A DNA stretch of 41,167 nucleotides, from contig JAITWZ010000053.1 of assembly GCA_031284985.1 (NCBI GenBank), positions 1 through 41,167 of the forward strand, in the 5' to 3' direction. The DNA comes from Mycoplasmataceae bacterium (GTDB taxonomy: Bacteria > Bacillota_I > Bacilli_A > Mycoplasmatales > Mycoplasmoidaceae). The notes beneath the pieces were generated by a model. The model did not search any database. It saw nothing but the letters and a program-made list of their open reading frames with translations, and was not told the DNA's origin. Both the position numbers and the translations under genes were made by a program. Below, in pieces: positions 32,697-40,518 of the stretch (the stretch's first letter is position 1; every line of letters begins with the position of its first letter).

Positions 32697-32912
32697 CTAT
32701 TTTCGTTCAATTATACGCCCCTTAGTAAGATCATATGTGGAAACTTCTACAACTACTTTATCACCGGGTAAAATCTGTGTATGACGCAATTTCATCTTAC
32801 CACTAAGTGTGCCAATAATTTCTAAATCATTTTCTAATTTTATTTTTGCTGTAAATGAATTAACAATTAGCGTAACTTTTCCCGGTAAGGTAATAATATT
32901 AGAATCAGCCAT
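32697..32912 (-). CDS. infA: translation initiation factor IF-1
   Basis: A 71-aa single S1/OB-fold protein of normal length, with the conserved GKVTLIVNSFTAKIKLEND and LSGKMKLRHTQILPGDKVVVEVS. IF-1 occupies the ribosomal A site during initiation. It overlaps the rpsD stop by 1 bp (TAATG), so it is translated with S4. infA is usually in the spc operon beside rpmJ; the pairing with rpsD is a rearrangement. Confidence 0.96.
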   Translation of the reverse strand: MADSNIITLPGKVTLIVNSFTAKIKLENDLEIIGTLSGKMKLRHTQILPGDKVVVEVSTYDLTKGRIIERK

Positions 32913-33559: not shown

Positions 33560-35989
33560 CTATTTATCTTTTAATTGAATGACTTTACGGTCACTTCCCT
33601 TAGTAATAACTTCAGCTGAAGCATATAGTTGCTTGGCAATATATTTAGGTAAATCAAACATACTGATCTCTGTTTTGTCAGGAATAAACTTTGATAAAGC
33701 TTCATCAATATGAATTAGTTTTTTATTTTTTTTGTCTTGTAAATCATTTTTATGAATGTGTTTTCATACTTTTTTAACAGCATCAGAACGTGTAGTTACC
33801 TCAGTTCCAACTAAGTGTGAAATCTTTTCAGTGGGGATGACTGGTTGGTTAAATACATGCTTTGCAGAGTATTTCTCATCAGTTGTAGGAATATCTTCAG
33901 CAAGCGCTTTCATTTTCTTCGTATCAGCGTTTTTATCAATAATAATTTTTTTAGTAATATATTTAGTGATTACTTTAGTCTTATTTTGGTGTGTAGCTAA
34001 TTCTTGTTCAGGACCATCATAATTAACTTTATTTTTAAGCTCATTAGATAAATATTTAGGTAATGTAGTCATTGTAATCATCTCTTCAGGAATAAAATTC
34101 TTTAATAAGCCTTCAACATGAATCATTTTCTTTTGTTTACTATCTTGTAGGTTTTGTTTGTGAATATACTCTCATACTAATTTAGTCGCTTCAGCACGAG
34201 TAACAGGTTCTGTTCCCACGATTGGTGATAAACGGTCAGTTGGCAGCAATAATGGATTAAATTCACGTCGTGATTTAAATGATATTTTCTTGTCAGTTAC
34301 TAATTTATCAGCATATTTAGAAGGTGTTTCTTCAACAAAATCAACATTATCGGTAGAAGCTGTATCGATTGTAGTAACAGGACTACTTACTGGAGCATCA
34401 TGATAATGGTGAATATCTTGTACTTTCTCAACAGAAATAAGGTCTTCTTTAGAATTTACAAAACGCTTACTTGCATGAATTATTTTTTTATCACGTAAAG
34501 CATCTGGATCAACTAAATGTTTTGAACCACCTGATGAAGAAGAAGCGCCTTCTTGTTTTTCAGCAGCCTGAGCAGGGTTATGGTGTCCAAAGATACCAAA
34601 TAAACGGTTGTGGTGGTGTTTAGTTGTTGTAATATTTTCAGAGCTAGCATCACTTTCTTCTAAATCTTCTGGTTGATTGCCAACTTCTTGACCAGCATTA
34701 TCAAATCTAGGGTCATAATCATCATTATGAGCTCCACGACGATATTTAGCATAATCACCACGATCATATTCACCGTCTAAACCACTATCATCATAACCTT
34801 CACCCTTCTTATGTCTAATAACATGTCCTTCAGTTTCTTCTTCATTGATAATTTGTTCACCAATAATTGGGTCTTTAGTAGAAATAACTGCCTTAATATC
34901 ATTTTCAAGTTCTGAATCATTCTTATCTAATATTCCATCAAGTTGTGCCTTATCAACCACTGGTAATGGAACAATTGGTTCATTAACTTGTGACTCAATT
35001 TCACCTGTTTTTTCAAAAATATCAACATTTGGTAATTCTTGTTTAAATTTGTTGTCAGAAGTTCGGTGGTTGTAAACTAAGATAGCTGCAATTAAGTTTA
35101 ATGGGAAAAATAATCAAATACCAAATATCGAACCAAGTAATAAACCTTTGTGTGAAGCACTATCATGACAAGCAGCACATATTTTTTTGAAGAATCAAAC
35201 AGCAGCAGCGATTCAAATTGCAAATGCAGCAAGTGAAACAATGATAAATATTACGTTACCAGTGAATATATTAGCAACTTTGTCATATAATTCATCCGTC
35301 TTAAGAATATTTCACTTAAAGTTTTTACTTAAAATTCAAACAATCATTGCCAAACCACCTGCAGAAATCAATACTAATCAAATAAAACTTAACCATTTTG
35401 CCAAACTACGTCATAAAGAAATTGAATGTACTGAGAAATTCAAATGATCAGAAACTTCACCTTCTTTTTGTTTTGCAAATTTTTCGCTGTGAGCATTTGG
35501 AGACAATAGATATAGAATTACACCAATTAATAAAACAACGTTTATTGCGAAAACTGAAGCTGCTAAAAATATTGCACCTAAAATGTAATAAGTACGGCAT
35601 GTATGCATACTATGTGCGATTGCGTGATAAATAATAAGTGCTATAGAAAAAGAAATAACAAAGTAACCAATGATGTAAACAATGGGTGTAATAGTGCCAT
35701 CAAACACAAACTTAACCACATTTACCAAAAGGTCTGATAAAAAACGCGTTTTTAGTTCATCAACAAGAAAACGATACACTGTACCGGTGTTGCTATCTTT
35801 TGAATACAAGAAGTCACGTACTAACTTTCAGTTATTGCTCTGAATTGAACATACAACAACTAGTACAATGGCTCCAATAGTGAATAAAAGTGAGATAAAT
35901 AAACCAATAAGTGAAACTTTTGTTGCTGCAAAACGTACCCCAGTTGGACGAATTGTATATGTGTCAACAGATAAAGCCTTATCGCTCAT
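33560..35989 (-). CDS. six-TM membrane protein with two C-terminal SWIB domains
   Basis: An 809-aa protein. About six TM helices occupy residues 20-280 (a first pair around 22-45 and 85-108, then about 120-145, 182-202, 222-245, 258-280). A long polar linker (about 290-570) follows, acidic with a His-rich patch and many Lys. Two SWIB-type domains lie at about 575-650 and 710-793. Copy 1 has LSPIVGTEPVTRAEATKLVW, YIHKQNLQDSKQKKMIH and a final LPKYLSNEL; copy 2 has HLVGTEVTTRSDAVKKVW, NDLQDKKNKKLIH and DLPKYIAKQL. These match the SWIB core (LLG...R...W.YI..NLQD...I...LS..L), known from SWI/SNF BAF60 proteins, MDM2 and Chlamydiae. Eight or more TGA codons encode Trp. Function is unknown. Confidence 0.85.
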
Positions 35990-39864: not shown

Positions 39865-40518
39865 ATGGCAAAGCCTAAGTTAATCGACTCTGTAGAAAAC
39901 AATGAAACCATATATGATATATTATCCTCTTGGGTTTTCGTCTTAAATACTAAATTTCAAAATCGTCAAAACGCTTGTATTGTTGACTCAATATCAATTG
40001 TGAATAATGTTCCAAAGAAAATTGTTATGAGTATTTCAAAAAAATGTCTATCAGCAGAATTTATTAAGGCAAATCCAATTTTTAACTTAACTGCCATTGG
40101 TCGTGATACACCAATTGATGTATTACTAGATTTAGGTTTTGATACGGGATACAAACACAATAAAATGGATCACTTCCCGCACAAAAAATTAGGTAGAAAC
40201 CAAATATTTTATATTCATAGTGATTATAGTTTGTATTACATGGAATGTAATAGTACAGATTTAATTGAAGAAGATGACCACTACATTTGTATTGCACGTA
40301 TTATGTCAATAACAGAGTTGCATCCTGAAATTAAGCCCTTATCATTTCATTACTATTTAAAAAATATTCAACCAATCATCATCAAGAAATTACCACAAGA
40401 ACAAAGATGTACTGTTTGTGGTTACATTCACCAAGGTTCAACACCTCCAGCTGTTTGTCCAGTTTGTGGACAACCACAAGAATACTTTAAACCACACGTT
40501 GCTTATATAAAAAAATAA
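39865..40518 (+). CDS. flavin reductase-like domain fused to rubredoxin (Hrb-like)
   Basis: A 217-aa protein. The first 165 or so residues match the FMN-binding split barrel of flavin-reductase-like proteins of anaerobes (NACIVDSISIVNN, KKIVMSISKKCLS, FNLTAIGRDTPIDVLLDLGF). The end is a rubredoxin-type iron site: CTVCGY at 182-187 and CPVCGQP at 198-204, with the spacing C-x2-C-x12-C-x2-C. This is the architecture of clostridial high-molecular-weight rubredoxin (Hrb), which passes electrons from NAD(P)H to flavodiiron oxygen/NO reductases or rubrerythrin. The partner is not in this window. It ends abutting the convergent 41-aa gene. Confidence 0.88.
   Translation: MAKPKLIDSVENNETIYDILSSWVFVLNTKFQNRQNACIVDSISIVNNVPKKIVMSISKKCLSAEFIKANPIFNLTAIGRDTPIDVLLDLGFDTGYKHNKMDHFPHKKLGRNQIFYIHSDYSLYYMECNSTDLIEEDDHYICIARIMSITELHPEIKPLSFHYYLKNIQPIIIKKLPQEQRCTVCGYIHQGSTPPAVCPVCGQPQEYFKPHVAYIKK

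What the first reader, a model, noticed from the sequence alone, without database searches (positions are those of the whole stretch)
33560..35989. Membrane-anchored protein with two SWIB domains in a mollicute
The C-terminus carries two copies (about 575-650 and 710-793) of a domain whose pattern of conserved residues (VGT, TR, VW.YI, NLQD or DLQD, I, LPKYL) matches SWIB, which is best known from eukaryotic SWI/SNF complexes, MDM2 and Chlamydiae. Here they sit behind six TM helices and a long acidic/His-rich linker. If the N-terminus and linker face the cytoplasm, the SWIB pair could tether the chromosome, topoisomerase or ribosomes to the membrane. Domain likeness is seen in the sequence; the tether role is my inference.
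Basis: partly seen in the sequence, partly recalled or inferred. Interest (0 to 1): 0.8.

Follow-up and report, generated by a model that had tools for sequence, protein, structure and literature searches.

The report
Membrane-anchored SWIB proteins in a mollicute
A wall-less bacterium carries a chromatin-type protein module (SWIB) on a membrane protein, one of four such genes in its small genome, which probably holds something in the cytoplasm, perhaps the chromosome, against the membrane; I found no earlier description of this arrangement.

Summary
The 809-aa minus-strand ORF (code 4) holds two SWIB/MDM2 domains (Pfam E 2.8e-32; AlphaFold models match BAF60a, plant SWIB and MDM2) behind six hydrophobic segments and an acidic linker (net -25). 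It is not an isolated oddity. The genome has six SWIB domains: a basic stand-alone protein shared with relatives, this gene's pair, and one at the C-terminus of each of three other multi-pass membrane proteins. Membrane SWIBs form one clade (100/96). An ortholog with one SWIB lies before rpsD in a sister genome, as here. Loop charges put the SWIBs in the cytoplasm. None of 82 SWIB proteins from other bacteria and viral contigs is multi-pass; 55 have histone-H1-like tails. Samples of class and phylum gave no convincing SWIB outside the genus. Within it, SWIB is common where HU is missing (Fisher p=0.006, uncorrected for kinship). Best reading: a recent family of membrane adaptors, made by putting a nucleoid-type SWIB on several anchors, that tethers the nucleoid or another SWIB ligand to the membrane. 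The cytoplasmic side is predicted; the partner is inferred. Nothing links it to topoisomerase, and only gene order (rpsD-infA) to ribosomes. New variant of a known kind.

The parts
33560..35989 (-). Whole gene, 809 aa, membrane-anchored double-SWIB protein (code 4)
35075..35908 (-). Membrane part, residues 28-305: six hydrophobic segments, read as two repeats of two TM helices plus a Pro/Asn-centred possible re-entrant hairpin; the same unit occurs about five times in the C60 paralog
   Evidence: hydropathy, loop charges, BLAST between paralogs E 1.7e-6; the hairpin is inferred from charged loops on both sides
34310..35074 (-). Acidic, His-containing linker, residues 306-560, net charge -25
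34565..34615 (-). Short hydrophobic motif in the linker (RLFGIFGHHNP, near residue 463), resembling repeated motifs in the linkers of the paralogs (IWARMFKKHP, SFGEKIKEMFHHE)
   Evidence: similarity by eye and regular expression only
34043..34237 (-). SWIB domain copy 1
33863..34033 (-). Lys-rich linker between the two SWIB copies, residues 653-709
33629..33841 (-). SWIB domain copy 2
   Evidence: sister to the C49 paralog's SWIB
33563..33625 (-). C-terminal tail (AEVITKGSDRKVIQLKDK) shared with the C49 and C60 paralogs
   Evidence: BLAST: alignments run to the last residues
32912..33526 (-). rpsD (uS4), 33 bases downstream; same order in the only genome with an ortholog (G013)
32697..32912 (-). 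infA-like (IF-1) gene following rpsD
   Evidence: identification by sequence, from knowledge of IF-1

Best explanation
The gene makes a multi-pass membrane protein whose two SWIB domains hang in the cytoplasm on a long flexible acidic tether. It belongs to a small, recent family of membrane SWIB adaptors in this mollicute, made by fusing a bacterial nucleoid-type SWIB domain to at least three unrelated membrane anchors and then duplicating it. The most likely job is to bring the ligand of SWIB domains, most probably the nucleoid (DNA directly, or a nucleoid protein), to the inner face of the membrane. In a wall-less cell this would help to place or segregate the chromosome. Shown: SWIB identity and fold, architecture, paralogs, single clade of the membrane forms, conserved gene order. 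Predicted: cytoplasmic side. Inferred: the ligand and the tether role.
For: SWIB by profile and fold. Four membrane SWIB genes in one 0.82 Mb genome: P0001, C49 (8 TM), C60 (about 15 hydrophobic segments and ~11 basic repeats), C13 (4 TM, 740-residue acidic tail), SWIB always at the C-terminus. Loop charges put the C-terminus inside: C49 inside loops 2, 3, 3, 3 K+R against 0, 1, 0, 0 outside. Membrane SWIBs one clade, 100/96. dN below dS between copies, e.g. 0.28 against 0.99 for copy 2 and C49. Ortholog before rpsD in G013. Other bacterial SWIB proteins are small, basic, with H1-like tails in 55 of 82. SWIB proteins bind the whole genome in Waddlia, and chloroplast SWIB-4 compacts nucleoids and complements an hns mutant. 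G000 and G013 have no detectable HU; SWIB and HU tend to exclude each other in the genus.
Against: Membrane SWIBs are less basic (+6 to -6) than stand-alone ones (+4 to +13), and the C13 one is acidic, which argues against direct DNA binding by all of them. The linker here is acidic. No experimental result on a mollicute SWIB was found. The SWIB/HU pattern is confounded by kinship and by incomplete genomes (82% for this one). The fold is also that of MDM2, a peptide binder, so a protein ligand is equally natural.
Confidence: 0.45

Rival explanations
1. Cortical scaffold by peptide binding: the SWIB domains work like MDM2, binding short amphipathic helices, and the ligands are the repeated hydrophobic motifs in the linkers of these same membrane proteins and their SWIB-less relatives, so the proteins cross-link into a submembrane network in place of a cell wall or cytoskeleton.
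For: Models match p53-bound MDM2. Linkers carry repeated motifs such as IWARMFKKHP (about 11 copies in C60), SFGEKIKEMFHHE (C13), RLFGIFGHH (P0001), and SLGQKFKGIFHHG in SWIB-less acidic membrane proteins at C19 and C53. Membrane SWIBs have lost positive charge.
Against: No binding was tested or modelled. The motif resemblance is weak and found by eye; C49 and the G013 ortholog lack it.
Confidence: 0.25
2. Ribosome or translation anchoring: the SWIB pair binds ribosomes or initiation factors and places translation at the membrane, as eIF2D, which holds a SWIB/MDM2 domain, works on the 40S subunit.
For: The gene sits directly before rpsD and infA here, and before rpsD in G013. eIF2D is among the fold matches.
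Against: Operon position alone; the three paralogs are not next to ribosomal genes. The eIF2D match is one of many of the same fold.
Confidence: 0.1
3. Tether of topoisomerase I.
For: In Chlamydia SWIB is fused to topA (PMC12445093); topA lies near the C60 paralog; the NCBIfam hits are topoisomerase-SWIB models.
Against: Those hits cover only the SWIB part of the models. topA is more than 1 kb away on the other strand from the C60 gene, with two unrelated ORFs between, and is not seen near the other paralogs.
Confidence: 0.07
4. Surface-exposed or host-directed protein: the SWIB pair faces outward or acts on the host.
For: Mollicute membrane proteins are often surface antigens (general knowledge); a Waddlia SWIB protein reaches the host nucleus (PMC6426960).
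Against: The positive-inside pattern places the C-terminus in the cytoplasm; no cleavable signal peptide was evident by eye.
Confidence: 0.05

Closest known systems
Bacterial small SWIB proteins with H1-like KA/KP tails (Betaproteobacteria, Bacteroidota, Sphingomonadales, Elusimicrobiota)
   Same: Same SWIB domain, 32-43% identical over the domain in the alignment; the mollicute stand-alone SWIBs group with these
   Different: They are small (mostly 80-190 aa), soluble and basic, with no multi-pass membrane part in 82 examined
Chlamydial SWIB proteins: SWIB-only (Wcw_0377, CT460) and topoisomerase I-SWIB (CT643)
   Same: SWIB at the C-terminus of a larger bacterial protein; unstructured stretch before it
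   Different: Fused to topoisomerase, not to membrane helices; no tandem SWIB reported
Plant organelle SWIB proteins (SWIB-4, SWIB-5, SWIB-6)
   Same: SWIB domain used in bacterial-type nucleoids; SWIB-4 compacts nucleoids and complements an hns mutant
   Different: Small proteins, not multi-pass membrane proteins
BAF60/SMARCD, Rsc6 and UAF30 SWIB; MDM2 N-terminal domain
   Same: Fold
   Different: Eukaryotic nuclear complexes or a ubiquitin ligase; about 20% identity
DNA-membrane tethers of bacteria such as RacA of Bacillus
   Same: Proposed task of linking DNA to the membrane
   Different: No sequence relation known; different domains (own knowledge; only title and abstract start of PMC6593407 seen)

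Membership tests
SWIB/MDM2 domain family (PF02201) | Profile score above Pfam's gathering cut-off for each copy | tested here: met
   53.2 and 60.7 bits against 25; whole protein 2.8e-32
SWIB/MDM2 domain family (PF02201) | SWIB/MDM2 fold | tested here: met
   AlphaFold2 and Foldseek: 1v31, 1uhr, MDM2, probability 1.00
Topoisomerase-SWIB fusion proteins (NF004966 / NF011313) | Topoisomerase catalytic domain | tested here: not met
   Model match only at positions 768-860 of 862 and 900-981 of 988; 85.5 bits against 868 and 83.6 against 1088; no topoisomerase domain in Pfam
Bacterial SWIB nucleoid proteins with H1-like tail | Lys/Ala/Pro-rich basic tail before SWIB | tested here: not met
   Linker is acidic, net -25; tail present in 55 of 82 others
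Bacterial SWIB nucleoid proteins with H1-like tail | DNA binding in vivo or in vitro | not testable with these tools
   Needs EMSA or ChIP
Multi-pass membrane proteins | Several TM helices | tested here: met
   Six hydrophobic segments, window means 2.2-2.9 on the Kyte-Doolittle scale; no dedicated TM predictor was available
Membrane SWIB proteins of this lineage | Common origin of the SWIB domains | tested here: met
   Clade 100/96, but few columns and long branches

The most novel reading that the evidence does not exclude
In one mollicute lineage that has lost HU, SWIB proteins have become the nucleoid proteins, and the SWIB module has been copied onto several unrelated membrane anchors to build a membrane-to-nucleoid (or submembrane) attachment system not known in other bacteria.
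Probability: 0.3. Interest if true: 0.8.

Novelty: new variant of a known kind. Interest (0 to 1): 0.6.

Why it matters
How wall-less bacteria with very few DNA-binding proteins place and segregate their chromosome is poorly understood. A lineage-specific set of membrane proteins ending in a nucleoid-type domain gives a concrete, testable candidate. It also shows the SWIB domain used as a mobile C-terminal module on membrane anchors, beyond the known bacterial forms (stand-alone, H1-tailed, topoisomerase-fused).

Tried and rejected
A eukaryotic origin: mollicute SWIBs are nearer to bacterial ones; the eukaryotic rows have very long branches and cannot be placed. Phage origin: no match in phage records, none in PHROGs for P0001, two viral contigs only. 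Known family for the membrane part: none in Pfam; a resemblance of the Pro-Asn hairpin unit to CD225/dispanin was considered from memory but is not supported by any Pfam hit. SHOCT end domains in the SWIB-less relatives: suspected by eye, not supported. Linker motif shared across relatives: the C13 linker repeat matched in this genome only; the C60 and C19 repeats were sought only here. Promoter and terminator scans were at chance level. The taxon could not be named; no call gave the organism.

Full report
WHAT WAS CLAIMED. A mollicute ORF at 33560-35989 with six TM helices, an acidic/His-rich linker and two C-terminal SWIB domains, perhaps a membrane tether.

CHECK. The ORF is there, on the minus strand, 809 aa under code 4. 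Ten of eleven Trp codons are TGA, including the conserved Trp of each SWIB copy. Pfam gives SWIB at 2.8e-32 as the only family with E below 1; both copies pass the cut-off alone. phmmer against the PDB finds UAF30, another DM2 protein and, weakly, BAF60a. AlphaFold2 on alignments with 27 or more other rows gives confident cores, and Foldseek returns SWIB and MDM2 structures first. The linker 306-560 has net charge -25 and 5.5% His.

NOT ALONE. The genome (824 kb in 61 contigs, 82% complete) holds six SWIB domains. One is a stand-alone basic protein of up to 97 aa beside the trigger factor gene (trigger factor named from its sequence). Three more are C-terminal on other membrane proteins: C49, 429 aa with 8 TM segments; C60, about 1300 aa with 15 hydrophobic segments and about 11 repeats of a basic unit containing KKEGIWARMFKKHPKPKKEEP; C13, about 870 aa with 4 TM segments and a 740-residue acidic tail. 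Apart from chance-level matches, Pfam sees only SWIB in them. The membrane parts of P0001 and C60 are related (E 1.7e-6); no relation was found among the other anchors. SWIB, with its flanking stretch and C-terminal tail, is the shared part: 63% identity between copy 2 and C49 over 121 residues, 46% with C60. The tree puts all membrane SWIBs in one clade (100/96), copy 2 sister to C49 (99/87), with the tool's warning that columns are few and the C13 and copy 1 branches long. dN is below dS for all pairs tested, though the margin is small for the G013 comparison of the membrane part.

DISTRIBUTION. In the genus 14 of 36 genomes have SWIB, mostly as one stand-alone protein. Membrane forms were seen only here and in G013, whose 565-aa ortholog has one SWIB and lies directly before rpsD, as here. 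In the rpsD loci of the other relatives that could be read no such gene precedes rpsD. Samples of the class (395 genomes) and phylum (392) gave nothing outside the genus except one weak match, which in the extracted frame looks like a Fic-type protein rather than a SWIB protein. [quoted passage not shown] Of 82 such proteins (80 from genomes, 2 from viral contigs) none is a multi-pass membrane protein (one has a single borderline hydrophobic window), and 55 carry a K/A/P-rich H1-like tail. No paper held was found that treats SWIB in Mollicutes or a membrane SWIB protein in bacteria (judged by titles and abstract starts).

TOPOLOGY. Only hydropathy and the positive-inside rule were available. 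C49 is clear: 2, 3, 3, 3 Lys+Arg in inside loops, 0, 1, 0, 0 outside, C-terminus inside. C13 also ends inside. In C60 and P0001 the third hydrophobic segment of each unit has positive loops on both sides and a central Pro-Asn, so it may be a hairpin; with 6 TM, or 4 TM plus 2 hairpins, P0001 ends inside either way. For C60 a cytoplasmic end depends on the hairpin reading, since 15 is odd. This is prediction, not proof.

HOW IT MIGHT WORK. A SWIB-only protein gives ChIP peaks all along the genome in Waddlia (PMC6426960), and chloroplast SWIB-4 compacts nucleoids and complements an E. coli hns mutant (PMC7209962). This genome and G013 have no detectable HU, and in the genus SWIB and HU tend to exclude each other: 4 with both, 10 SWIB only, 17 HU only, 5 neither, Fisher p=0.006. 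That p-value ignores kinship; SWIB clusters on the rpsD tree, and genomes are incomplete. Together these favour a nucleoid tether. Against it, membrane SWIBs have lost positive charge, and the MDM2 fold binds short helices. The linkers of these proteins and of SWIB-less acidic membrane proteins on C19 and C53 carry repeated short hydrophobic motifs, which could be SWIB ligands. I put the tether at about 0.45 and the peptide-linked scaffold at 0.25.

VERDICT. Real, correctly identified, and richer than described: a recent family of membrane SWIB adaptors. The role is inferred. New variant of a known kind, interest 0.6.

Noticed in passing
Genus-wide, G000-G035: SWIB and the nucleoid protein HU tend to exclude each other across 36 genomes of the genus (Fisher p=0.006, not corrected for kinship).
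   Followed up: partly
L025 843-1778 and 6723-10474 (contig C13): Microvirus-like genes (major head protein, replication initiation, pilot protein, virion structural protein) and a separate phage-type integrase lie on the chromosomal contig of the C13 SWIB gene: probably an integrated microvirus in a mollicute.
   Followed up: partly
L127 (contig C19) and L128 (contig C53): Membrane proteins with very acidic linkers and repeated KKSLGQKFKGIFHHGKSDK motifs but no SWIB; the two contig ends share the repeat and may join there.
   Followed up: partly
L024 6227-7621 (contig C60): Tandem repeat of about 123 bases coding for basic units with an IWARMFKKHP core, about 11 copies, in a membrane SWIB protein.
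   Followed up: yes
L121 and L122 (IMG/VR contigs): Two contigs labelled viral encode small SWIB proteins; L121 is very close to sphingomonad chromosomal copies, so it may be a mislabelled or host-flanked contig.
   Followed up: no
L022 2871-3164 and L130 3934-4224: The stand-alone SWIB gene lies next to the trigger factor gene in both G000 and G013, although their SWIB proteins fall in different parts of the tree.
   Followed up: no
window 39865-40518: Protein with a rubredoxin-like C-terminus (CTVCGYIHQGSTPPAVCPVCGQP) in a mollicute; a similar end occurs at L022 5854-6360.
   Followed up: no
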